NCBI GenBank assembly: GCA_025677815.1
Contig: JAIXMP010000012.1
Location: 124,001 to 188,000 of the forward strand
Direction of reading: 5' to 3'
DNA length: 64,000 bases
DNA from: Phascolomyces articulosus
Lineage: Eukaryota; Mucoromycota; Mucoromycetes; Mucorales; Lichtheimiaceae
The notes under the pieces were generated by a model. It ran no database searches and was not told the DNA's origin. It worked only from the letters and a program-made list of their open reading frames with translations. Made by a program: the position numbers and the translations under genes. Shown one piece after another: positions 1,204 through 63,634 of the stretch. Each line of letters begins with the position of its first letter. Within the stretch, counting starts at the first letter, position 1.

Positions 1204-3741
1204 ATTTCTTTTTGAAAATTTTCATGTTTTAGAGAAAAAAAAGTTTAGAATATTGCCAACAGAATAATTTGATGATGATTACCTTGTTTTCGCTGTTTAT
1301 TTAATGTTGTGTCGCGATATACAAAAAGTTTGTTTGATGGAGAATAAGAAAAAGATGTTGACGATGGAGGACAAAAATATAAAGAGAAAAGAAAGGACGA
1401 TAAAAAGAATGAGTGATGGAAATAATCAATTGCTAAGCCGAAGAAGCATTTTTGGATTGTTGTGTAATGTTTTACATGAAAAAAATAAAGGCTTCCTATT
1501 TTATAAAAAATGAGCGCCTGCGCTTCGCTTCGTGTCATTTAACAGGTTCGCATCGCAAGGGGTATTCCCCTCTTGACCCCCATTGCAACCATGTTCAGAG
1601 TAGTATAAGAGGTGTTTTGTTTAAAGCCATATATTTATCTATTTGTGTGTTCAAAGCTTAATTTTTCATTTTGAGTTGTAAGCCCAAAGCTTTACATGTT
1701 ATTATTGCTGGAAAAAAATGATGACTACTCGCTTCGCAAGTTGTCATCATTTTTTTTTCCTTTTCCTATCATGATCTAAGCCTAAACACTATAAAAAAGC
1801 TATCGAATAAAAAAAAATACACGCGAATTATTATCTACAATGACTATTAGAGCAATACTGGTAGTTAAGTTAACCTAACCTACCCCTACCTGTCTGCTTA
1901 ATTGAACTAACTCTTATTACTCATTGGCCTCAACCCCTTATTGATCTCGATCTTTAGGATAACATGAATTTTACTTGTGTTCAGATGACAAACGAAATCA
2001 TATCCGGTGAATTCAAGGTTTGTATTCTCAATATTGTCAACATATAATACATTTAAATTGATATTATCGGACTCTTATTTTATTCAGTGTTTAGGGGAGG
2101 AGTAGGTAGATGGCTACTGAGCCGATTGAGTATTGGAAACAAAACAGTAAAAATGGTTGTTTCTGCTAACTTTGAAAGCGCCTGATTGTAAATCACAATT
2201 CTTCACGATATCTGTCAAAAGAAAGAGGTAATATATTTTTTTGAAAACGATCAACATAATATGCTCACTCACGTATATGGGTAGATAATAGATATGCTAT
2301 TTTTTTAGACCTGAGGATTTGATGAAATTTAATGATGGGCTCAGATACATCATCTTGGGAACTTATATACAAAGTACAAAACTATCAACTTGGATGGGAA
2401 GTGTCATATTTTTTTAAAAAAAAAATATGGATGGCGTTGGTTTTTGTTCTTGTATAAATATGGTTTCATCTTCTGCTTCTTAATTTGGGTTTCAATAATA
2501 ATGCATTTGACATATCAGGTACTGTTGTGGATGACCCATTTGATTTTTTTTTAAAAGCCAAACAATTAAGAAGCAGGAGCTTTGTTTACGGTTTTGGGAT
2601 AGTCCTTGGGACAATAGTAATATTCTCTTCAGGTATTATATAGATGCAAAATATTGTATGACAATGGCTTGTCGGGTCTTAATGAAGATTGTTATGGTGA
2701 TGTTGACTTTTGAAACCAGTCTTTGATGAAATAATGCATAGAATCCCATATACCAAACGGGAATGGGTAATACTTTTTATTTTCTGGCTTTGATGTTATT
2801 TGGTTCAGTTTATTTTACATGTATAATGTTTGTTTGTTTATCCTATGAATCATAACAATCCATTATATGCAATTCATGCTATTATTCCAATCTTAGTGAA
2901 CAAAGATGGTATTACAACACTGGTTGTGGAAGTAAGATTACCCAACAAGTAAAGCGAACGAGCAAAGATCCATATTAAACTCACCATTGAAACGAAGATC
3001 AGGATGAAAAGATGAATCTCTGGTATGTGATGCATTAGTTGAAGGTTAGTATTTTTCGATATCTATGTTTGTGATATATATATATCAAGTACTCTTACAT
3101 CCATACTAATATATATATCATCGTAACTCTATATAAAAGGTCCCACAGGCCCTTCAAGAAGGATTTAGAATACAGTCGCTTTATCCACATGCATACCTAG
3201 AAGCAAGGATGACATCGACCACTTAAAAGGAACATTGAAGACATGATTCCCAATGAGAGACAAGTAGTTTTCTTTTTTCTTTTTTGTATGAAATATATCA
3301 ACTAGTGTGATTAGAAGCATTTAACTTTTATATGCCAATTACATACTCTTAAACGCCAAAAACACTATAAATCAAAAAAAAAAAAAAAAGAGAAAAAAAT
3401 TTATTATTATTTTTTTTTTCTGGTTTTATTTTGGATGAGAAAAAAAACGAAGAAAGATATAATGAAATACGTTTGTTTGTTTGCTTTAGAAGAAAAAAAA
3501 AATTGAATTTGTTATAAAATATTTGTTACTATGAAATTTCATGAGAGAAAAAAAATGTTATATTGATTGATTGGGTTGTATTTTTTTTGGCATATTATTT
3601 TTGAATTTTTTTTCTCTGATGAATTGTTTTTCTTTTATAAAGAGGAATATAAGAGAGTGAGATTGTAAGTAGAAGAAGTAAAAAGGGAAGAGAGAGAGTG
3701 GGTGTGAATATGTTGGAGTGGTTGGAGAAATTTATTTTTTT
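1204..3741. other. Intergenic, AT-rich, no gene supported
   Basis: No convincing coding frame. It holds many A/T runs, a GC-containing quasi-palindrome (1712-1758, arms around CGCTTCGC) between A and T runs, and a GC-richer patch with CpG-bearing short repeats near 1515-1600. Short ORFs at 1245-1661 overlap on both strands without domain or codon support. Confidence 0.6.
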
Positions 3742-6700
3742 TTAAACCGTTTCATCTTCATCCATCGTTGCCGGCAACTCTGATGGTTTGACCATACCAG
3801 GAATAGCTAATGCCTTTTCACGTTCAGCCTTTCGTTTGGCTTCCATTTCAGCTTCTTTTTCTTCCAAGTAAAGTTCTGCATTCTCGCCTGCAAATTCCTT
3901 CAATTGGATTAAAAAGTCGCGTACTTCTAACTTGAACTTGGAAGGAATATTATTGTATTCAAACATGGCCATAACAAACACCTTAATTTGACCACTATGT
4001 GTATTATAGATATAAAAAAATGTATAGCAGCTTATGAGTATATGTGTTATTCTGTGACAATTTGTCTATTTTTTTAATGAAAGATATTCGTCTTTACCTT
4101 TGTAAATGTGGGAAGGCATTCTGAAGTAATGCTGTCACATATTGCTCCAAGAATTGAGCATTGGTAGTATTAGGATCCGATACTTGGGATGCCTCATACA
4201 AAGGCACTTGAATTCGATTACTTGTTACCAAATTGAACAATTGTGCAAGTACTTCGGTTTGTCCCTTGAAACCTAATCATTGAAACAAATTGAATAAGAC
4301 CGGATGGGCTTACATCATTTTTTTTTAAAAAAAAAGTAAATAAGCACAACAACTTACCACTCTTGTGATCACGATCTGTAAGAACAAAAAAGATATCTTG
4401 TAATATACTACGATAATACGAACGATAGAATGCACCAGCAATGGCGGGATCTGTATTACTGATATTGGTAAGGAGTTCGGAACAGATTTGAAGACTGATG
4501 TCTGCAATATCACGCATGGTATGTTTGAAACCCCAGACAACACTATCAATAAACAGTTTGAATTGTGCTGGTGCAAGTTCCAATAAAGCTGGGAAACAAT
4601 GTTGATTGATAGCACGTAACATATTATAAAAACCAGTTCGATGGTCTGGGAATTCGGCAAAGTCTTTGGTAATCATATTCAAGGTAGGTTCGAAAGTGGC
4701 TTCGAGTATAAGTGGAATTCTTGGTGTCATCATATTCTATCATCATCATAAAAAAAAGAATATATATATATATGAATATTCATTTTCTCGCTCAATATCT
4801 CTTTCCTCTCCTCTCCCTTCCTTTCAGATATACATACCCTCAGTTTATTGACCATGGTAGCCATCACATTTAGTACTTCATGATCTCTGGCAATATCCAC
4901 ATTATTTTTATAATCAGATAATACGGCTTCAAAGAAAGGACCGACCATATTTTGTTCAATTTGGGCAAGATCTTCGGCACATTCCAAATAAGCATCGATC
5001 AATTTCAAGATTTCCTTTTTGATGGTTCTCAAACCACGAATCTTGGGTGTCTTGATGGCAATTACGCCTTGTTCTGCAACAGCTTGAGATACTAACTTGC
5101 CAACAATACCATAAAGTGACAACAAATCCATATAAATTTTACTTAATTGAATGATATAACCAGGACCGACGGATATACAGGCAGCCACATTGGTTTTTAA
5201 TACATTGCCCAACACCTTGATTTCGCTTGGATTGTTAAGAACACTGACATCTTGCTTGGCTCTTGACATGATACTGTTCCACTAATTATATCCGGAAAAA
5301 GAAAAAAAAGTTACTATACATAATCCATTGAGTATGGATAAAACTAAAAATCACTTACAGCAGCATTAGGTAATTCCATGAAATTAATCATTAAGCGTTC
5401 TTGTGCAGGCTTGTTATGACTTTGTGCCGAGATCATATAACCGACAGCTTCATAGAAAGTATGAATCTATAAATATACTTGGATGTAAGAAAAAAAAAAT
5501 ACTATAACATTCCACCACGAATTTTTTTTTGACATGTCACACCATCCCAATGCTATTTCCTTATCTATTACCTGTTGTGGTTGAAGATCAGATGTAATAC
5601 CATCAATCGACTCCAAAATCTCATCAATAAAAGGTCGCAATTCACCTTGTTTTTGGGAAATGAAATGACCTTTACATTTCTGTGAGATCTTGATAAATGT
5701 ATCACAAGCCATGTCTTGTACACCTTCATGAGACTCGTGCATAAATTCAAACAACTTGTTGACAACTGTCTTGAGGAACTTCCAATGGGCTTTCAAGAAA
5801 CGAGGGTATTGACCAACAGTATACATGATATTGGAAGCCACGACAGCCTTATTATCTTTACCACTCTTCTTTTCACATAAACTTAACAATTCCTTGATTA
5901 CTGTCACCAAGAATCGTTTTTCGGTTTCTTCATTCATAGCACCAGAAATAGAACCAATAGCCCAACAAAGTTTGTTTAAGTTTTGCCATGACCATTCAGA
6001 ACCATCCATCTATAACCAAGTATTAGTATTCACAAGTTGTCCATATTTTTTTTACATCCCCCCTTTCCTATCCTCTATTTTTCCTATTACATCCTCCTCT
6101 GCTCTTGATCGATCCTATTACCTGTCTTGCCAACTTGTTCGTCATAATTTCTTCTGTATCGGCCACATCCAAATTGGTCAAATAAACAAGAACTTCCTTC
6201 ATACTCTTGTAAAGAACAATTGTGTCACTTTCCTTGACAAATTCACGTACAATTTCACCTTCATCGTTTTCAACCACCAACACTTCTTCTGGTTTGACCA
6301 TACGTTCAATCATGACCACACGTAAACTGGAAAGTACGTCTACATAAAGTAATTTGCGAGGTCTATAACCATGAAGACCACCACTCATGGGACCTGCATT
6401 CAATTCTAACAAGTGTTCAGGTTGTGGCATCGAACGTACTTCTTCGAAAAGTTCTTGGACCTATCATACATATCCCAATTCAAAAGTTTAATTCACTTGT
6501 TCCTCTATTCTGATAATTAAACTATCTCTCCCTCCCTCCCTCCCTCCCTCCTCCTCTTTTCCAATTCATCCATCCTTATCCCCATGTATATCATTACTTA
6601 CAAGTTGTGCCCAATATTCCAAACAGATCTTGAAAATTTCACGATCTTCTACACTGGAAATTTTAATAAGATAATAATGGGCATTGATCAAAAGATCATG

Positions 6701-47942: not shown

Positions 47943-50254
47943 CTATATTGATCGCATGTAGAAAAGAATATAAGCTGTTTGATCAGCGTGAATAGTTTCA
48001 GATGTTCGGGTATTTTCCTCTGCCATCAACACGTCTCTTTCGGAGACTGGTGTGATGTTTGTATCGTTGATATGCAGCCACATTCCATTCTGTCTCCGAA
48101 TCTCACAAGTATAGTGTCCGCCACCTGCGGATACGCCATGATGATATACGACTAAACAATTTTTATATTTATATAAGCTTTTCCTGTTCATGTTCTTCTT
48201 TTCCTTTCCTTTTTTAAATCCTTCTTTTTTCGAATAAACAAACAAAAAAATAAACTTACTGCCAAAGAGTTTATAAGTCACGGGTTTTGTGGATCGATGC
48301 ACTGGGGTTAACCATTCTTGATGGATCGTCAGCTCAGCGCCATATTGCACGGGTTTTTGAAGCTTTTGTACACCTCCTACATTATCAAAAACAAATCGCT
48401 TCATATGTAAAATCAACACTGGTGGTAATGTTTCCAAATACACTTGTTTGGTGGCTTCGACCCGTTGTCCTTTAGGGGACATGTAATCATGCATGATTTC
48501 TGGTACGGTCATATTACGAATAGCATCTTCGATGGTGGTGACATTGTCTGGTTGAATATCCAATGGTAATGATTGGAAAGGTTCCAAATTGGCTGAATCT
48601 TTGGCGCCAGGACATCTTAATGTTGATCGTACTTTACCACCAAAAACTTTGCTAATAGGGGAATCCTCAAAACCAGTCTATAGAGGTGAAATTGATCTCA
48701 TAAGTATCCCCAACGCTATTCAAACCTTCTTCCTTCGTATATCAAAAATATCAAATCATACCAATTGAAGATTGCTTGTTTTGTTACCAGGACCAACTTC
48801 AAGCCAGCCATTACCATGGGAAGCGGTGGCTGCTGCAGCTTCTTCGGATTTCTTCTTTTCTTTTAAAACTATAGTGACGTCCCTTATTAACCAATTCTCA
48901 TCCATTTGAATTATATCCATTTAATCAACTTACCAGAAACCATTTCTTCGTGCAAACCATCCAGTAAGAAACACAAGAATTCTTCTGCATCTTCTTGTCG
49001 TCCCTGTATACATCAATTTGAAATGAGTAACGATCTCTCTCTTATTCACCTTTGAAACAACCGTTTCCTCTCTTCTTTGCTCCTCCATTTCCATTTCCTC
49101 CTACCTTCAAAGAATCAAATCGTTTTTGTCCACGTAAAGCATCATACACATATTCGGGAACAAAAGGTTCCCCATAAGGTTCTGTTTTCACTTGTTCGTT
49201 TTGAGCAGGTTCTGGTTTAAACTCATTCATAAATTCAATCATGGAATCCAACAAAGGAGTCTTGCTTCTAAACGAATGAACCACATGTTGTCCAATGGTC
49301 TTTAAAAGATTATAAAATGGAGGACAATGGGAAAGAGGTTGTAAGATCACATTCATAAAGCACGTGTTGACATTGTTGATAAGACCACGCGGTTCAAGCA
49401 AAGGACTATTGAATCGGGGTTCATACCGATGAATAATATCAGCAATACCCATAAATTTGGTAGGAACAGTGGCTGTTGGTTGAACCAACATAGCATTGGC
49501 ACCTCCATTCACGGACAATTTACCCACTGGGGAAGAAGATCCACTGATAGGTGATTTAGATGCACCCTGAGCTGCTGCTGCTGCCGCATTGGTAGTCTTT
49601 GCTTTAGATGATACGTCTTCTGATTTTAATAATGCTGCCCAAGTCGTAGGTTTTGCCTTGGGTGTTTCTGCAGAAGAAACAGCTGGCGATTTGGATGGTT
49701 GTTGTTGTTGCTGCAGTGAAGGGGATGGGGCAGATGATTCCGCAGTAATGGTAGGTTTTGTTGCTGTGGTAGTACCATTCACCAATGGTTTTTCTTTTGA
49801 TGTTCCATTGGTGCTAATCGTTGTTGTTGCTGTTACCGTAGATTCCACTATTGATTGTTTTTGCTCGTTATTAGTGTTACGTGGCGTTCGTTTTCCTTGA
49901 ACACCCGTTGCAAATGGGGTCTACAATACATATTAAATTAATTATCCAGCTTGTCAAAAAAAAAAGTAACACCAATCCAAACCATCTATCCTTCCCCCCT
50001 TTTTTTTTCCACTCCTCGAGAAAAAAATAATACCTTTTTTGGTGGAAATAACGAAACACCTGCTTGATTAAGAACAGAATTGATCTCTTCACGACTGAGA
50101 TCGCCAAACCCAAAGGTTGGCGGCGTAAGTGCCTGTTCAGATTTCTAATCAATTAAAAAAATAGGGTTAGTTTTTCTTAATCCAATCCATCATTGACATT
50201 ATTTTTTTTTACACGTTCAATCATTCTTTTCCATTATACCTTCCCCGATGGCAT
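47943..50254 (-). CDS. Ubiquitin-specific protease of the Ubp3/USP10 type, 7 exons
   Basis: Exons 50254-50240, 50144-50034, 49920-49105, 49003-48934, 48868-48762, 48677-48260, 48151-47943 (1,746 nt, 581 aa), all GT-AG and in phase. The first coding exon is only 15 nt. Residues 18-22 (FGDLS) match the FGDF element by which USP10 docks on G3BP; yeast Ubp3 partners Bre5, also NTF2-like. A low-complexity linker carries WAALL. Catalytic core: Cys229 in [16 protein letters not shown], then [38 protein letters not shown], His525 in GGGHYTCEI and Asp542 in HINDTN. The Gly normally two residues before Thr-Cys is Val here; yeast Ubp3 also varies at this site. Predicted roles are COPII/ribophagy/stress-granule deubiquitination with a Bre5-like cofactor, by homology. 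Confidence 0.93.
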
Positions 50255-51545: not shown

Positions 51546-54500
51546 ATGTCCAATGCAGACGAGTAAGTTATCTCTTCTTTTTATATTTCGGTCACAGTTT
51601 TGTCTAACATAAGATATTAGCAACACCACCATTGTCACCACGTCGTCCGATAATAATAAAAACAACAATCCCCATGCCACCCATTTAACCAGTCAAAATT
51701 TAAAGGTGCGTACGTTTAAAATAACTATATCGAATGGAACGACAAGGTGAAACAAAAATAACTAATAAATAAGGGGTGATAATAGAGTGCTCGTAGCGCG
51801 ATCCTCTTTACCAAAAATGCAGCTTTTCATTCGAGAACAACACTTACATTATGGCTTTTCAATCGCATGTTTGAACCTATTGATCCAAGTTATGAACATG
51901 AGGTATATATATAAGAATAATAAGAAGAACAAGAAACATGAGTTTATTTAAGATAACCTTTCTATTCCAAATAGGGTATGAGTTTCTTGGAAATATCCAA
52001 TAACACACTATCATCGGTTCCAAGTACACCTACAGCCACCGTAGCGACTCAACAACAACAACAAGAGGGAGAAGAGACAAAAATAAAACAGGAGGAAGAA
52101 ATTATGATATTGACACCTCGAACACGTATCCTTTCCATTGCCAATGAATATTGTATGGTGATCATGATGGATTTAAGTTCTAGTCTTGCAACGACCGATG
52201 TCAATCGAGGCAATATTATGATTGATAACATTCATGCTACGTACGTATTTCTCTCTCTCTCTCGTATTTTATATCAAGTGCAGCAGAGAGAATAGTCTTA
52301 TCATCTAAAACAAAAAACACCATCTTTGTTTCTTTTAGACTTCGTAATATTATGGTGGGTCTCGCTCAGCCACTTCCCATGCCAACGACCACATCCAATT
52401 TTGCATCAGTATGTGTTTTTTTTAATAATAGCTGATTCATTAAAAGAAAAAAAAACACATTATCTCACTCTATTATTATTATTAGTTTGAACCAATCATT
52501 CGCTTAACCGTGATTGCCGAATGTTCACAATTTGGATCCAATATCAATGTAATTCCTATTTTGGCCGAATTCCCTACCATGCGTGTATTTTTACAAAATG
52601 TACGAGTGACACCTTCAAACGTATCCTCCATCTTGAAAATTCTTCATGATAATGTTGCTATTTTCTTACGTGATCTTGCTACGTTTCGACAAAAGTTGAC
52701 CAAACGACGGTCGAAACTTGGATATGAATTGGATGTACGAAGAAACCATTCGTCGGTCATGATGGATCATGAAGGAGAAGAAGGGACACATGAAGGAAGG
52801 GATGAATTTTTTGATGGAACCACAACGTATATGGAACCTCTACAAGATACCACATTGACAGCAACCACAACCACAACAACGACTACAACTACAGGCAAAT
52901 CCACCAAGAAAAAAGGACAAAAGGATGGAAAAACTAGTGCACCGAAAAAAACAAAGAATACAAAATCACAAACCAGCAATACACAAAAATCCACAACAAC
53001 ATCTTCTACCACGACCACCACTACAAATACACGATCACGTCAACAGAATCGATCCAATGAACATCATAGCAAAAAAGATATTTGGGGTGTGGGTAAAACA
53101 GGGAGTAATCTCTCATATATTCTTCATGCAGGTGTTTTTGCACTTGATCTATTACCGCCTACCGGCCAACGTTCCTTGATTTTGTTGACTGATGGTGTTG
53201 TCAAATCCAACATTCAAGATGAAATGATCATTCGTCAATTATCTAGTGATGGTATTACTTGTAACGTGGTTCAAATCAGTGCTGGACCTTTTATGGATTG
53301 TAATTTTGGTTTTATACCCGATACCGATATTTTGAAATTTGTTGCTAGTGCCACCGGAGGTCAATACATTCATATTGAAGAATTATTATGGGCTTCACCT
53401 TCCTTGAATCACAAAAATAATTATGGTTCGACGGCAACAACACCATCCACAACAGGTTCGCTGGATATTCTGGATCGTATGATGGGAGAATTGACATTGC
53501 CTCAACAAAAATTTTTGATGCATGAAATATTTTTGGATAAGTCGGTTTTAAGAAGAGGAGCAGGATCGGGAACAACAGGTACAGCAGCAACGTCTCCCGA
53601 AAAATCACAGCAAAACAATTATCTCGCAATGGGAACAGCGGGAGGGACAACAGTTGGAAGAGGAGCACGGAATAGATTTTCATGGATTCCACATGCTGAA
53701 CCGGAATCTGTTGAATCAAAATTATTACGATACCAAGAATACGTATTGCCAACACCACTTTCTCATGTCATTGCTGCACGTACACGACAGGGCTTTTCTT
53801 TAATTTCAATTACACTGGATCGACGACGTGTTACACCTTTGAATAGTTCTTCATCACGAGGTATAGGAGGAGGAGGTCATGGTGGAAAAAAAGTGCAAGT
53901 GGTCATTACACTTTCACTTCAGTGGCAGCCTCAAATCACCATTGAGTATCGTATTCGCGCCGTTCTTTCGCCCAACAACGATTGGATCCTTTCGAGCTAT
54001 TTTGGTACAGGTACTATTTTCGAAGATGCAACCTACCTATCCTCATCAGCAGGAAGTATCAACCCGAATTTTAGTCGATTACTTGCAGCATTGATCAATC
54101 CAAAAACAGAAATCTTGATTCGCGCCAACAATACGTTCTCTCATCTCCTTGGTAATTGGGATCAATTCCAACGTCGATTCCAAGTCATGGGTATTTTTAC
54201 AGGTGGTGGGACTCAAGGACATTCTTCCAACAACAGTATAGGCAATTTACCCGGTTCTGCTGCCATTCTGAAAATAAGCAAACTGAAACAATTATTGACC
54301 ACCATTTCTGAAGCAGACAAACAACTCAATACCTTCCTCACTGTCGTAGAAAGCAACACAATGAATCGTCGAATGATGGCTTCCTCTTATATTTCTCATT
54401 TCCAAGAAGTATGGCAAAAAATGGACGACAGTAGTGACGTGCGACATTATACATCGTGTTGGTACGATACCCATCATCATTTTGATCTTATTTTACATTT

Positions 54501-57500
54501 TACTCCTTATTATTGTTATACCTACCGAAACCATTCGTCATCCACAACGAATTATATTGCTTCCGCAGAAGAAGCCGTCATTTCGACCGTACTCGACATA
54601 CTGACGGAGCTACTTCGTCAAATGACGGATTTTATCAGTAATCGAGGCACGTTTATCAAGATATCTCCTCCAGTAATCGCCAGTCATAGTGCTCGTATGC
54701 ATGAAATTCAAATCACGCATGAGAATTTGCGCACGATTCATATTGATGTACGATTCTTTAATACCCCATTAACCACACGGTTACAAATCATGGAAGAATT
54801 GATGCATATCTTGGGTACACGTATTGAATTGAACGAGGGACAAATATTGGCAGATCTTGATATTGGTCATCCTTCTGATTCGGCAACGGTAAATCATACA
54901 ACCACAACAATGGCGACGACACGTAATAATTATCGATCTTCGACCGCTAAAATTGAAATTGCCAAACGACCACTCTTTGGTTTATTGATGCGTGATACAG
55001 AACATTATTTTGGTATTGCCAAGGGACGTGAAGAAGGATATTATCGTCGAAGACCTACCACTGCTGCTTTACTAGCAGGTGAATACATTGTCCGTAATTA
55101 TTTACGAAGACAACGTTGGAGTTGGGATACCAAGGTGGCAGTACCGGTTGAAGGGATTGCAGATGATTTTTATGGGTTGCATTCACTCCATGATCTCGCA
55201 TTTGAAAGATTATGTCAAGCAAGATTAAAGGAGGTAAATTCTAACTTTTTTTTTACTGTTTTGTTTTGGATGAACCAGGACCCACTGTTATATTAACGAT
55301 TAAAAATTCCATCCTTCTAGGGTTATGTATTGATTTCATTCAATGAGAACACTTGCCATTTTTACAAGGAATTTCAAGATCGTAACACAACCGAACGATC
55401 AGCTCAATATTTTATATGGCGCGATCCAGCTAAACATATTTTAACAACAGAATTCTGGCTAGAACCTGTGACACGCGATGCACATCGAATTGAACGCGAT
55501 ATAGTACAGACGGAACAACGACGTTTATTTCAACAAGACAGAAAAATCATATCCAGACTTGTCACATTTGATTGGACATTTGTTACTGGTCATCAACAAC
55601 AACGTGGTCTTTCTCCTCCGTCCAGTGGTAAAACAATAGACGAGAGTCATCTGGATAATGATTTATTAGGTATTCATCATATTAGAAAATCCATGGTCAT
55701 TGATATATCCTCTGTATTACGGCCAAGCATCTTTTCCATCGCAGTTTACCCTTGTCCACAGCAACAACAATCTGTTGGTGATTATCATTTGAATCCATCT
55801 TTACCACCGAACGGTATGGATTCTACTACAGTGGCAGTGACTACAACTGATCCATCACAAATACACGGTGTTGTTTGGTTACAAACGGAACGTTATTTAC
55901 CTCTGACAGCTCCTGTGGCGTCCATCACTTCACCCAGCAAGACAGATGATAGTTACAATACAAGAAGTTGGCACGGAGGAAGTAATAATGCAATGGCATC
56001 TCCTTCCATTAGTCTTATTCGCGGTGGTAACAGTAGTCACTACGTAGGATCAGCATGCCAATGTCCACGACCGGATCATGAATTTCTTTCTCATAGAGAA
56101 GCATTATCCGATCTGCCTTCTTCATATCGCGATGTCGTGTTAACACATTATTATTTTCAACAATATCTTTGCGTTCTTGCTGATTGTAAGTTGGATACCA
56201 AGTCACCTTTACCCAATGATAGCTTCTGGTCTTCATTTTTCCGAGAAATTATCCATGGAAGTAGTAGTCCTGAAACACATGCCTCCAAGAGCACCTTACG
56301 ATTCGTGCGACGGATTACCGATATGGAGTGCTTTATCAAGACGTTTAATCCAAGTACATTTATTGTTGCATTGATACCTTCCCTGACCACGTTGGTGCAA
56401 GGTGCATCCGATACATCTTCCTCTCCAGGAGATGGCCATTTGGGCTTTTTATTGTTTGAATGTCATCGACAAACAGCAACAAGTCGAATGGGTGAAGCCT
56501 ATCATGATGAAGAGGACGAGAGCAACAATAACAATCATAGTGAACATGTGTCGAGTGGGAAAGGATATACATTTAAAGAAATTGATTTTTCATCGATCAA
56601 AGAATCTATTCTATCACCACGCCTCACTCATGGGTTTAATCACGGAGGAAAGACAAGCAATGAAGAAGAAGATGCACAACAACATCATAAAGTACTTTCT
56701 GATTATAAATCTCGATTATTACAAGACATGACGGATATTTATTCCAGTTGTTATGCAAAATCAATCTATTCATCCCTTTTGTTTGGTAGTATGGTGGCAG
56801 ATCAAGATTTCGACAAGGTGTTGGATATTTGTGAAGAAACGGTTTTGGATATTGATCTTACTGGATATCTCAATGTACAAACATTATTAAAACGGCACGG
56901 CAGAACTAGGTATAAAAAGTGAAATAGATAGATAATGTAAATCAGGGAAAGGATCGTGTTTTACTCACGAATAAAATGTTTCTCAATAATTCTTAGTGTC
57001 GATGAATGGAACTCAGCACAACAACGATTCAATTCTGTTCTTGAACATTATTTCGAACCCATCATGTATTCCAAAAAGAGAAGCCAATTCATTTATTGTT
57101 ATCGACCTGCTCATGTCAAAATTGGACAGCATCACAAATCAGAAACAACAGGTGCCAAGTTGACCAAATTGGCGGATATTGTTGTGTCAGCTCAGTGTCC
57201 CCTCTTTATTCGACTTGAATATACGTTGAAGAATTCAAAACAATCGACGACAATGACACTTCCATTGGAATTCCTTCCGACTTCTTATGAAGGGCAGGAT
57301 GCACTCGGACAATTGTTTAATTATGAACCTGTAGATATTGGATCGCTTGAATCTCCTGTGGCATCTGTGGATGAGTCGTCAGCTACGGTCCGTCTCGTGT
57401 GTATGACTATTCCGCAAACGAAATATGCACCTGTGGTTCATTCACGCCATTCTCACGGATGTCCAGCGGAAAATCCTGTTCACCATCAATCGTAAAGTAT

Positions 57501-60500
57501 CCACTAGATAAGATGTGAACGATACATTTTATGTATATTGATCCATTAATTATTTATGTTTTTGTTTTCCAGGTCGTTATTTGACAATGAAAATGAATAC
57601 CGTGAAGCACTTTCTGGATTAAGTACTGAAAAGCAAGACGCACTGATTGAAACAAAAGCTCGTTTAGCTTGGTTATTGACAGAAGAAGTCATGCATGGAT
57701 TATTACGTGCAGGTCCAGTCACGGATGTCGTTGTACGATATATACAAAGTCATTTAATGAAAAAGAATCCATTTGTTGATTTCCCAACGACGATGGTGAT
57801 TCCACTTGTCTTTGTCAAGGATCAACAAATGAGTCGACGTGTATTCCTTGAACAACTGGAACGTAATGCCATGACACCCTACAAATTAGTACGTGTAGGT
57901 GATTGTTTTTATGCAACAGATCAAAAGGAGTACACAGATATATTTGATGCAGGCGATAGCTATTTCTATCGATCATCAGAAACAACGAGCCAACATCAAC
58001 ATCAACCCCAAGAAGGAGCAGACTTTTTTATGGATTTGGGTATTGAAGTCTATTCCGATAAACCATCCCACCCCCAACAACAAACGTTACAACAGCAGCA
58101 GCAATCATCTCAGCAGCAAGAAAATGTGGCTGGTTCACCGAATGATGAGTTTTGTGAAGGTTTGGGCATTAGTATTATGGAACCAGATATATTTTCAGAT
58201 GAGGAGAATCCAACAAGTACGAACAATATGGTAGACCATCAGCAAGTTTATCAACAACTCTATTGGCTATTAATTATTCCTCGTTCACAAACGGTTCAAA
58301 TATACTTTTATTCAAAAATGCCTCAATCTGTCAATCGATCAGAAATTGTGCGTATGACCAAGGTCATGATCAATGATGCTATTGAACGAACAAACAAGTT
58401 GGTTCTTTTACAGCATTTGAATGCTACTCGTGTTTGCAGGTAGAAATCCATAGTTTCAAAGGAAATAGCCACTCTATCCTAAAATAAGATATATCTAACG
58501 AGATGATATTTTCTATTAGCAAATATTTATTGGCCAATACCGATGCAGCATCGAACAATGCCAATGACATGTCCAGCGATGAATCATCCGATGATAGCAA
58601 TGACAATGGTAAATCCAATTATATGGATACAACGACAGCTACAGGAGGAAATTTGGTTGAAATGCTTTCCACCTCAGGTGAAGAAGCTTCTTTTACTCCA
58701 CCCAAGAAATTCCGCCCTGGTCAATTTGCATGCGATGTGATATTTACATGGCGATTCCCTCTTCATTGGCGATTACAGCCTAATATTGCACTAAACGCTC
58801 TTTCTTCGGATGTCTTGCGCCATTTCACTGTCAGGAACAGACCCAATATATTTGTTTGTATGCGTGATGATACAGTGATTTATTGCACACTTCATGAATC
58901 GACTGTCGTGAATCATTATACGGATGGTAGTATTATTGATTATCCTATGAATGATGATACTCAACAACACCAACAATCCATGCGAGCTACTTCACCTCAC
59001 AATTCATTGTTAGCCATGGGTATCAATGATTCAATGGCTTTCTCTCATCATTCGCGGGCTCAATCAGCGCAACCAACAGCTACATCGTATTCACTGTCGC
59101 AGCAAACCCAACAAGATAGTCATCATGGTGGTGGTAACAATGGAACTAATAATAGTAGTCGTCGAACAAGCCCAAGATCAAGTCCAGGTGGTAAAGTGCA
59201 TAGTACGAATAGTATTCAATTATCTCCAGAACCGCGCAAGTCGACACGTACAGTCGAATCACGGGAGTTGGTACTTGAAGTATATGGCGTCGATTTACCT
59301 AATTGGATTTCTGATGAATTGGTTGATTTGTTGGAGAATCGATTAATGTCGCATGTAACACTTAAAGAAGTTCAGCAATTTTTGCTCCGAAATCCTGGAT
59401 CAAAATTATCGCGTGCTGTAAGTGTACTTTTCTCTTTTGCTTTCTTTTCAGTAAATAGTGGAAGGCTGGGAAAAAAGCACAGGGTTGTTATATATGATAT
59501 AGACTGATTGTTCTCTTTCCCTTTCTTTTTGACAATAGGACATTGATTTTATACTTCCAGTGGATAAAACACCTGCAGTGCATGAAAATATGCAATTACC
59601 CACGGATATTTGTGATAGGGTTCAATTTGCACGACTCTTACGTGAAAGTGTCTTGACGAATTCCATTCGAGTTTTAACGGGCAATGGACTTGCTACTTCA
59701 CTCAAGAATTATCGACTTCGTCAACAGTATAATAACTTCAATCTTGGCAGCAGAGGATCTTATTTTACACAGTAAGTTCAGGAAATGAGAAAAAATTAAT
59801 AGTTTACACGACCAAAAAAATATACAAGTGATTCACTAACACTTACGCTCTATTCCATTTATTAGTAAGGACAATCTCAATCCAGAAAATGCTGCAGTAG
59901 AAGAATTATGTTTTTATTACAGCTGTATTAACCGTACACCAGGTGTCTGTACGGATCTCGAGTTAAACATTGGACAAGGTGTAGCTGGCGTTATCCTTTC
60001 GTTTAACGATTTCCTGATAGAAAATGACATGCAATCCACTACGACAGACACAGAGAAACAACCTCCTGATGCCATGCCACGCAGTTTATTATCTGCCTTT
60101 GCGTCTAAATCAGCTTACAATAGTAATATGGGCGATCAACAACATCATCAACTACACTTTGGAAGGTCACTCTCAGTAGATATTTGGACTGTTGGACAAG
60201 TCGATGGCCGTGCTTTATATGATCATATTTACAAATGTTTTAGACAAAGTATTTGTGATTATATCATTGAACAATCTATAGCAAGTACATTACCACTATT
60301 CGAAGATGGAGTTGGAGCAACAGAAGAAACACCTTTGGAGGATATAAGTGATGTTCAATTTAGTGCATTGCTGTCATCTTTGGTTCATGTACTTGAAGGA
60401 TCCTATCTTTGGAATAACCCAAGTGTCAATATGGTTTCTTATCCTGTCCACTTGCAACCATGGAGTTTGAATCAAGTAGTCCAACGACTCAATGCTGATT

Positions 60501-63500
60501 TTATTGCGTTAAATTCAAACATCAAATCGGCTGTCGGAATACAACGGTTTATTCATGAGCACCGACAACAACAGCAGGAATCTTACAATAACACAAGGAA
60601 GGCATTACATTACAAAATATGCTATTCATGTACAGATCTAAAGCATGAAGCGCAGGCCTTGATGCAACCCCAAAAGAATATTCGATATTCAATGATCAGT
60701 GGTCTGAACGAGTTTTCTACCTATCGACATTTCCATGGACCCACGCGACCAGAACTTACCGTTGCTTCCAATACTACAGTCATCGAAGAGAGTGCAGGGG
60801 GATTGAATCGTAGTGATGTCGCTTCCATTTTACGAACAGACCAACATAGCGCCCATAGTCGCCATGAATCTATTGCATCCTCCAACGTACCTAATAACAA
60901 CAACAATAATAACAATACCAAAAGTATTATTCCCAACAAGTTATTACAAAAACCTATGCCATCATCGCACAAAGACGCTGCGCATCGTCGTGCTTTCCAC
61001 CTTGTCGTACTTGATGCTGAATCTTTTACGCTCTATACCTACAATTATACGAAGCCATTTGTTGATCAATTGACGCAATCCATTGAACAAACACTTACGC
61101 TTCAAAACAATCGGGCACGTATGCTTCAAAACATTATGCATCAAAAGCTGGGTTTGTTTCGACATTCAGAAGCCTTTTCTACGATATGTAATGACTCTGC
61201 TCATACCATGGCCATAACTGCTGAGGATGAATCCACACGTGGTGTCGAGATTTTGAAAAATTTGGTGAATAACAACATGTTTTCTACTTCAAGTCATCAC
61301 CATCATGGTATGGAACCTGGATCTGCAACGACAACAACAGCTGTGAGTCGACCCTCATTATCAGCTGCATCAAGTGCTACACGTCTTTCCAATACTAAAA
61401 TGGGTTCGACGGCTACACTCCCTACCACCGTCTCCACATCTATTTCTTTACATTCATCTTCAAGCCAATTATTGACTGATTGCAATACAGCTTTGCAGAG
61501 TGCTTATACCTCACCAGTCCATACAGTCACCACTACCCTCTCTGACGCAGATCAAATTCCTGATTACTTGACACAACATGGTACACCTTTCCTGAACACC
61601 TTTTTGCAACACTCACAACTTCGTGCAGCCCATGACAAGGCATTCAATGTGTATATTAAATGGGCAAGTCGTTATTCCTCTGCTTGGATGCAAAAGGCGG
61701 GACTGGAATCTAAAAGAGATCGTAATGACAACAACAATGCTTCTGAAATGATGTCCGTTACTGAGCTTCGTCTCATTTTGAAATCATCACGTTTATTACA
61801 TTTTTGTCGTACACCATTGGTGTTCTCAGATATTGATCCAAAACGATCGGGCATTTTCACTAACACGAATGCCAACGTTGAGACTATTCAACAATATCAT
61901 ATTCGAGAAGAAACTATGATTTGGTATGAAGGGCTGGCCCATACATTTATGGAAGAATACGCATCCTATCTGCAAAGTGTTGGTATGCATGTGATTGTAC
62001 ATGGTGTTTCAGGTAATAATAATCCTAGCAAGGAAGATCAAGGAGTGTACCTCTCCCATTACAAGGTAGCAGATGATTTCCTCGTTCGGTCTCCAGTCAT
62101 TTATTTACTTCAAGTCTATCCTGGTGGTACTATTATGTGTGAAGCTAGATTAACAGATGTCTTTGTATCTGTGACCTTATATACATTACATCGTCGTTAT
62201 GGTCGATTAGCAGCCATGAGTCATTCTCCTTATCAACACGAAAGTAGTGAAAAACGCCGTGCTGATTTCAAGGATTTTACAGAAGAATGTGATCGTTTCA
62301 AACAAAAAATCCATGTGAATTCATTTGTCTACGATTTCAACCTCAAGTTTATCCAACAGTCTTTGGACAATGCAGCCTCATTGCCTTCCTCTGTGGATTT
62401 GTTAGGTATTATCAAGAATACATTTTCGTTGTACTACAAGCCTGCCAATTATTCTCGGAATCGTATTATCAGTGGAATTTATGAATTGACACCCAACGAG
62501 GATCAACACCATGAAGAGGAAAACAGTATGAAAAACTTGTTTTCGATGGTAATTCGAAACGCTTCAAAGTATGGATTTGAATCATTATATACCAATGGTG
62601 TCCCAACTGCTTGCTTCATCTCTTCAAACGATACATCCTTCGGGAAAGAAAAAGGTCATCATCATCGCCAAGGTAGTAATAATAGTTGCTATCGTTATAC
62701 ACTACTGATCACAGATGAGCATCATGGTGGTGGTCGTATGGGTCAAGAAAATCACAACAGCCTGGGTATCGATCATTATGATTACGCTGAATCACCTAGA
62801 CAACAAGAGATGGCTACGACACCAACAACAATTACAGCCAATAGTACCAAAGTCATCGTTCAATATTTCATTATTATTACATACCAAGAGCCAAAAAGAT
62901 TTGCTGCAAAGAAAGATAGGACATGGTATCACTCGCCTGGATATAAACCAAGAGCATTATCAGGATCCCCAGAAGAAATATTGGAACCTGAAAAGCATAC
63001 ATTAGGAGATGTGACTCAAAAAGCAAGACAACGGATTGATGATTTAATGCAACAGGTAAACATAATTTTTAAAAGAATGAAGACCAACACTGTTAGGTGC
63101 TCACTGCCTCCGTGACTTTTTATATAGGCTGTACGTTCGTATCATCAAGATGTTATGTGGAATCAACTTTATCAGTCCATAGGCAACAAGAAAACCATTG
63201 AACAGGCTGAAGTCCAAGTTCTTTTGAAACTTGTGGACGAGTTTTATGCACTGGATGCCATTTCTGCGGAAGATTCATTGCAAAGATTTATGCAACTTAA
63301 TCTATCTTGGGAACGTCTATTGGATACAATCCATCAATTTTATCCCAAAACATCCAAGATTTTATTACAACAAGATGATTCCTCATCCATTATTTGCCGT
63401 CACCTTGTATTATTTAATCCAAGTGCTATACAGGAATATTTTGTTCATATCATTGTCACTTCATCACCATCCACATCTTCATCAACGACACAGAAACAAC

Positions 63501-63634
63501 CATCGGTGCAAATATTTTCAAAAAGTAAACAACCTAGAACAATTACAGATGCCTTGGATCGAACAGAAGAGTTATTTATTGGTGAATTGGCTGTCATTCT
63601 TGGCTATTGTCTCTGGAAATATACCAAAAATTAA
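51546..63634 (+). CDS. SZT2: SZT2 homologue (KICSTOR complex scaffold), 13 exons, about 3,693 aa
   Basis: In animals SZT2 links GATOR1 to the lysosome with KPTN, ITFG2 and C12orf66 to make mTORC1 amino-acid sensitive. Exons: 51546-51562, 51621-51705, 51786-51902, 51975-52240, 52339-52408, 52486-55233, 55321-56909, 56997-57491, 57573-58439, 58520-59417, 59539-59771, 59866-63055, 63128-63634 (11,082 nt), all GT-AG and in phase; human SZT2 has about 3,430 residues. The N terminus matches SZT2 order: SARSAILFTKNAAFHSR, TPRTRILSIANEYCMVIMMD, then DLSSS (139-143), LAQPLPMP, and GVFALDLLPPTGQRSLILLT with LTDG (Asp420), the DxSxS and D positions of a vWA-like fold. Thr-, Gln- and Asn-rich inserts punctuate the conserved blocks. 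No frameshift seen. The start is the first ATG giving a phased 17-nt exon 1; a different first exon is possible. Confidence 0.88.

What the first reader, a model, noticed from the sequence alone, without database searches (positions are those of the whole stretch)
51546..63634. Full-length SZT2 (KICSTOR scaffold) homologue in a fungus
SZT2/KICSTOR is known from animals and is reported absent from S. cerevisiae and S. pombe. Here an uninterrupted 13-exon gene of about 3,693 codons keeps the SZT2 N-terminal block order, including the DxSxS (139-143) and LTDG (Asp420) positions. It suggests that nutrient signalling through GATOR1 in this lineage kept an ancestral KICSTOR-like arm that yeasts lost.
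Basis: partly seen in the sequence, partly recalled or inferred. Interest (0 to 1): 0.75.

Follow-up and report, generated by a model that had tools for sequence, protein, structure and literature searches.

The report
Fungal SZT2, one of two copies
The gene is a real, full-length fungal version of SZT2, the scaffold of an animal nutrient-signalling complex; that such fungi keep this complex was already reported, but here the genome carries two ancient copies whose best-conserved parts differ, which hints at a division of labour.

Summary
Bases 51546-63634 (+) hold one 13-exon gene of 3,693 codons, identical to a deposited but unnamed protein of Phascolomyces articulosus (Mucorales). It is an SZT2 homologue: human SZT2 is the only solved-structure family it matches by sequence, the matching blocks keep their order to near the C terminus, and a predicted model of exon 6 matches SZT2 chains of KICSTOR-GATOR1 structures. 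The same genome has candidate genes for KPTN, ITFG2, KICS2, all three GATOR1 subunits, a SAMTOR-type methyltransferase, sestrin and TSC2. What I add: the genome has a second full-length SZT2 (B). A and B form two clades that separated before Mucorales and Umbelopsis split, and they show reciprocal constraint: relative to the middle part, the N-terminal part evolves faster in A and slower in B than in single-copy lineages (7 of 8 pairs each lie outside the single-copy range). This suggests that the scaffold's tasks were shared out between two genes. Complex formation, function and the division of labour are inferred, not tested.

The parts
51546..63634 (+). SZT2-A gene, 13 exons, 3,693 codons (exons 51546-51562, 51621-51705, 51786-51902, 51975-52240, 52339-52408, 52486-55233, 55321-56909, 56997-57491, 57573-58439, 58520-59417, 59539-59771, 59866-63055, 63128-63634)
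   Evidence: 100% identical to a deposited P. articulosus protein
52170..52184 (+). DLSSS, residues 139-143, MIDAS-like motif of the vWA-type domain
53185..53196 (+). LTDG, residues 419-422; Asp421 is the same in 62 of 63 retrieved rows (the exception, P0095, is a 1,851-aa record that apparently lacks this part)
52486..55233 (+). exon 6, residues 186-1101; predicted model matches SZT2 of KICSTOR-GATOR1 structures; about the first 304 residues of this exon match vWA-type folds
56062..56355 (+). residues about 1349-1446, aligned with mammalian SZT2 1026-1132, the stretch reported as needed for GATOR1 binding; only weakly conserved
59866..63055 (+). exon 12, holding the strongest C-terminal block shared with human SZT2 (protein 3020-3338 against human 2780-3102)

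Best explanation
The gene encodes SZT2-A, a fungal SZT2. SZT2 is the scaffold of KICSTOR, the complex that in mammals holds the Rag-GAP GATOR1 on the lysosome so that TORC1 is shut off when nutrients are scarce. The fungus has candidate genes for the other KICSTOR subunits and for GATOR1, so SZT2-A most likely builds a KICSTOR-like complex that holds GATOR1 at the vacuole. It shares this work with a second, anciently duplicated SZT2-B. Shown: gene model, family membership, partner genes by sequence, the paralogue, and the unequal constraint. Inferred: complex formation, vacuolar site, GATOR1 binding and any division of labour.
For: Sequence: human SZT2 in PDB at E 6e-19 for residues 1-1188 and 2.9e-19 for residues 1189-3693, six blocks in the same order. 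Fold: the best Foldseek and VIA-align matches of exon 6 are 9o5e_E, 9o5d_E, 9v0j_D and 9o5a_D, all from KICSTOR-GATOR1 entries. Motif: Asp139, Ser143 and Asp421 kept in fungi, animals, chytrid and oomycete. Partners in the genome: ITFG2 (human ITFG2 in PDB at E 5e-23), KICS2, KPTN, DEPDC5/IML1, NPRL2, NPRL3, Bmt2/SAMTOR family, sestrin, TSC2. Paralogue B full length on C58. Two clades each holding Mucorales and Umbelopsis rows; one Umbelopsis clade rejected, p-AU 0.0005.
Against: Overall identity to a mammalian SZT2 is only about 23%. Of the six C-terminal blocks only one is significant alone (the others have i-Evalues 0.7 to 24). The stretch reported as needed for GATOR1 binding is poorly conserved. 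KICS2 and KPTN rest on one and two exon-sized matches; another stretch of the KICS2 locus matched nothing relevant in PDB. The Bmt2 family also holds yeast rRNA methyltransferases (recalled), so it is not proof of SAMTOR. A Pfam scan found no family in the protein. The exon 6 model is of modest confidence (mean pLDDT 56.7). No expression or interaction data for this species.
Confidence: 0.88

Rival explanations
1. It is an SZT2 homologue, but A has drifted to another task and only paralogue B carries out KICSTOR work in this lineage.
For: In A the N-terminal part, which in mammals is the part solved with GATOR1 and SAMTOR, changes faster than the middle (N/M 1.12-1.91 in 8 A pairs, against 0.91-1.16 in 7 single-copy pairs and 0.50-0.95 in 8 B pairs).
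Against: A keeps the MIDAS-like motif, full length and the same order of blocks, and its middle part is more conserved than that of B, so it is under constraint and not simply decaying.
Confidence: 0.15
2. It is a generic vWA-domain giant protein whose likeness to SZT2 is limited to the N-terminal domain.
For: The deposited name is 'VWFA domain-containing protein', and single-domain fold matches include integrin I domains and TFIIH p34.
Against: Blocks of human SZT2 match in order to near the C terminus, and five Mortierellales relatives, 26-28% identical, are deposited as KICSTOR complex protein szt2.
Confidence: 0.02
3. The 13 exons are two or more separate genes joined by the model.
For: No RNA-seq was available; the gene finder was trained on the same frames.
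Against: Identical deposited model; 12 of the other 30 hits align over 90% or more of the query, 5 of them over 99-100%.
Confidence: 0.02

Closest known systems
SZT2 of animals (KICSTOR scaffold; PDB 9o5a, 9o5d, 9o5e, 9v0j, 25ge)
   Same: Length, order of conserved blocks, MIDAS-like residues, predicted fold of exon 6, partner genes in the same genome.
   Different: About 23% identity; long low-complexity inserts (seen in the translation); two ancient copies in the genome; different distribution of constraint.
KICSTOR of non-Dikarya fungi (Barua et al. 2025, PMC11836306; abstract, Results part 1 of 2, Methods and searched passages seen)
   Same: Reports KICSTOR homologues in Mucoromycota and says SZT2 has more than two copies in all its members.
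   Different: I find two loci, not more, in this genome by two exon searches.
Mortierellales and Umbelopsis SZT2 proteins
   Same: Same family.
   Different: Mortierellales, Gigaspora and Jimgerdemannia rows fall outside the A/B split; Umbelopsis rows fall in both clades.

Membership tests
SZT2 | Significant sequence match to human SZT2 | tested here: met
   PDB SZT2 chains, E 6e-19 (N-terminal part) and 2.9e-19 (rest)
SZT2 | Conserved blocks in the same order along about 3,400 residues | tested here: met
SZT2 | N-terminal vWA-type fold with MIDAS-like residues | tested here: met
SZT2 | One transcript | not testable with these tools
   Identical deposited model, no RNA-seq
KICSTOR complex | KPTN, ITFG2 and KICS2 encoded in the same genome | tested here: met
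   ITFG2; KICS2 (85 of 439 profile positions, E 1e-13); KPTN (two collinear stretches, 47-48% identity). Partial matches, not whole gene models
KICSTOR complex | GATOR1 encoded in the same genome | tested here: met
   IML1/DEPDC5, NPRL2, NPRL3
KICSTOR complex | SZT2 binds GATOR1 | tested here: inconclusive
   The stretch that aligns with mammalian 1026-1132 is weakly conserved; binding itself cannot be tested
KICSTOR complex | Assembly and location at lysosome or vacuole | not testable with these tools
   Needs cell biology

The most novel reading that the evidence does not exclude
Mucorales and Umbelopsis run two SZT2 scaffolds that have shared the ancestral protein between them: B keeps the N-terminal part under strict constraint (in mammals the part solved with GATOR1 and SAMTOR), A keeps the middle part. 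They would then form either two different KICSTORs, or one obligate A-B heterodimer in place of the dimeric KICSTOR-GATOR1 assembly whose structure is in PDB (9o5e).
Probability: 0.35. Interest if true: 0.6.

Novelty: new member of a known kind. Interest (0 to 1): 0.4.

Why it matters
A 2021 review still calls KICSTOR mammalian-specific and says that yeasts and Drosophila lack it and that C. elegans has only SZT2 (PMC8534245, passages seen), so the usual genetic models cannot be used to study the whole complex. A mould with candidate genes for all four subunits and GATOR1, and with two SZT2 genes under different constraint, would let one ask which part of this 3,400-residue scaffold does what, by deleting A and B singly and together.

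Tried and rejected
KPTN at L016: the second ITFG2-family hit (C45:1370718) looked like a KPTN candidate. Profile search found ITFG2 and BBS chains, not KPTN; comparison with human KPTN was negative (probability 2.7); a better KPTN candidate is on C22. L016 is left as an unexplained BBS/ITFG2-type propeller.

N/C contrast: with borders taken from solved fragments, A and B do not differ in N against C (p 0.34), and both lie below the single-copy pairs (p 0.02 and 0.01); only N against M separates A from B. The first region borders were chosen; one search used borders inferred from chain lengths, but still after the pattern was known. A first test of one block (A 901-1500) by circular shifts was not striking (11% of shifts as high).

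Rows dropped or invalid: the tree used 49 of the 63 SZT2 rows; one search used 21. In one search row P0095 appears to lack the N-terminal part and P0096 is truncated at the DxSxS motif, so their letters there are not real. The vertebrate sums printed are invalid (wrong clade after rooting). In one search Apophysomyces is a composite of two species, and three close pairs were left out. In one search the A pair Benj-Tham shares branches with Rstol-Rmicro, several single-copy pairs share a row, and some B rows are partial. The two Umbelopsis pairs (A 1.12, B 0.95) lie within the single-copy range, so Umbelopsis does not show the contrast clearly. Long branches (oomycete, chytrid, Gigaspora) are placed without confidence. 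In one search one weak out-of-order match (E 0.10) was set aside.

Full report
What is in the sequence. A gene finder written for this task, with GT-AG introns and codon scores trained on the long frames of this region, joined 13 exons from 51546 to 63634 into 3,693 codons without an internal stop. Because the training used the same frames, the independent support comes from elsewhere: a deposited protein of Phascolomyces articulosus (BDA99DRAFT_463016, called VWFA domain-containing) is identical over its whole length, on a contig of 1,243,284 bases, the size of the window's contig. The organism is therefore P. articulosus, order Mucorales, family Lichtheimiaceae.

Partners. In the window's own genome, Pfam profiles found ITFG2, KICS2, IML1/DEPDC5, NPRL2, NPRL3, the Bmt2/SAMTOR family, sestrin and tuberin/TSC2. 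The ITFG2 locus L015 matches human ITFG2 at E 5e-23. So all four KICSTOR subunits and all three GATOR1 subunits have a candidate gene; KICS2 and KPTN rest on exon-sized matches.

A second SZT2. Exon 6 found one further locus, C58:194519-196987, and exon 12 found the same locus at C58:187924-190674. tblastn blocks of the whole protein are collinear there from residue 115 to 3693, with an unmatched gap at 2389-3027 and one weak out-of-order match. The deposited protein P0068 (BDA99DRAFT_490295, 3,386 aa, on a contig of 219,516 bases, the length of C58) confirms a full-length paralogue B, 31% identical to A. By summed scores against one A and one B anchor, 10 species have rows of both types among the 63: Phascolomyces, Circinella minor, Fennellomyces, Radiomyces, Chlamydoabsidia, Rhizopus stolonifer, R. 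delemar, Thamnidium, Benjaminiella and Spinellus (names). In trees of 49 rows (FastTree) and 21 rows (IQ-TREE with a mixture model, quick search), A and B each contain Mucorales and Umbelopsis rows, and Jimgerdemannia, Gigaspora and Mortierellales fall outside. Support for Umbelopsis with A is 99 and 94, with B 100 and 99. Holding all four Umbelopsis rows as one clade costs 63 log-likelihood units (p-AU 0.0005). The duplication is thus older than the split of Mucorales and Umbelopsis. The published survey says more than two copies in all Mucoromycota; in this genome I see two.

Reciprocal constraint. Over 25 pairs of eight taxa that have both copies (Apophysomyces being a composite of two species), identity along the protein alternates: B is more conserved in all eight bins of residues 1-1200 (78% against 39% at 1051-1200) and at 2401-2850, A is more conserved over 1501-2400 and 3001-3450. 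As a control I compared the distance of the N part with that of the middle part (M), also in single-copy lineages. With borders chosen: A 0.94-1.72 (8 pairs), B 0.35-0.69 (8 pairs), single copy 0.73-1.05 (7 pairs). With borders taken from the extents of solved SZT2 fragments (N = mammalian 1-1330, M = 1331-2187): A 1.12-1.91, B 0.50-0.95, single copy 0.91-1.16; 7 of 8 A pairs lie above and 7 of 8 B pairs below the single-copy range. Rank tests give A against B p 0.00016, A against single copy 0.002, B against single copy 0.001. Pairs are not all independent, and the pattern was known before the second test. N against C does not separate A from B (p 0.34). Branch-length sums on a fixed tree agree: N 5.5 (A, 13 rows) and 3.2 (B, 12 rows); M 3.2 and 5.8; C 4.2 and 6.1. 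The N border is motivated by PDB: a 1,349-residue SZT2 chain is in the KICSTOR-GATOR1-SAMTOR entry 9o5d, and a 1,245-residue SZT2 chain is in 25ge together with KPTN and ITFG2. That these are the N- and C-terminal parts, and their extents in human numbering, is inferred from alignment offsets.

How it most likely works. By homology, SZT2-A with KICS2, KPTN and ITFG2 holds GATOR1 at the vacuole and so allows TORC1 to be shut off in starvation. The stretch reported as necessary for GATOR1 binding in mammals (1026-1132; passage in PMC8534408) aligns with A 1349-1446 but is poorly conserved, so binding is the least secure step. The unequal constraint suggests that A and B split the ancestral tasks.

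Known and new. Barua et al. 2025 (PMC11836306) report KICSTOR in non-Dikarya fungi, including Mucoromycota, with expression data from other species; I saw the abstract, the first of two parts of Results, Methods and searched passages. Three library searches (KICSTOR with Mucor, SZT2 with paralog and fungal, SZT2 with Mucorales) return only that paper, and what I saw of it does not describe the A/B division; its supplements were not readable. The core finding is therefore a new, unnamed member of a known kind in a lineage where it is already reported; the divided paralogues are the part worth following.

Noticed in passing
L016 (G000:C45:1367500-1374500), gene on the minus strand at about 3273-4927: A protein of about 360 residues whose relatives (36 hits) are Mucorales and one Umbelopsis, three hits being unnamed. 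A Circinella relative is predicted to fold as a propeller (pLDDT 89.8) closest to BBS1/2/7/9 and ITFG2. Moulds without cilia should have no BBSome (recalled), so its role is unexplained; the known distribution resembles that of the SZT2 duplication.
   Followed up: partly
G000:C58:186934-197765: Second full-length SZT2 (B), next to a gene whose predicted product looks like a 1,3-beta-glucan synthase (read by eye from the translation, not searched).
   Followed up: yes
P0019 and P0026 (Mortierellales SZT2 proteins): Deposited SZT2 proteins of 4,288 and 4,355 aa carry a DnaJ domain (for P0019, at 414-478); either a fusion or a model that joins two genes.
   Followed up: no
P0072 (Mucor velutinosus): An SZT2-B protein is deposited under the name glycerophosphoinositol permease, apparently a wrong label.
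   Followed up: no
window 47943-48677, minus strand: A neighbouring frame encodes part of a ubiquitin-specific protease: UCH domain, E 5.8e-26. The adjoining frame at 49042-49920 was not searched.
   Followed up: partly
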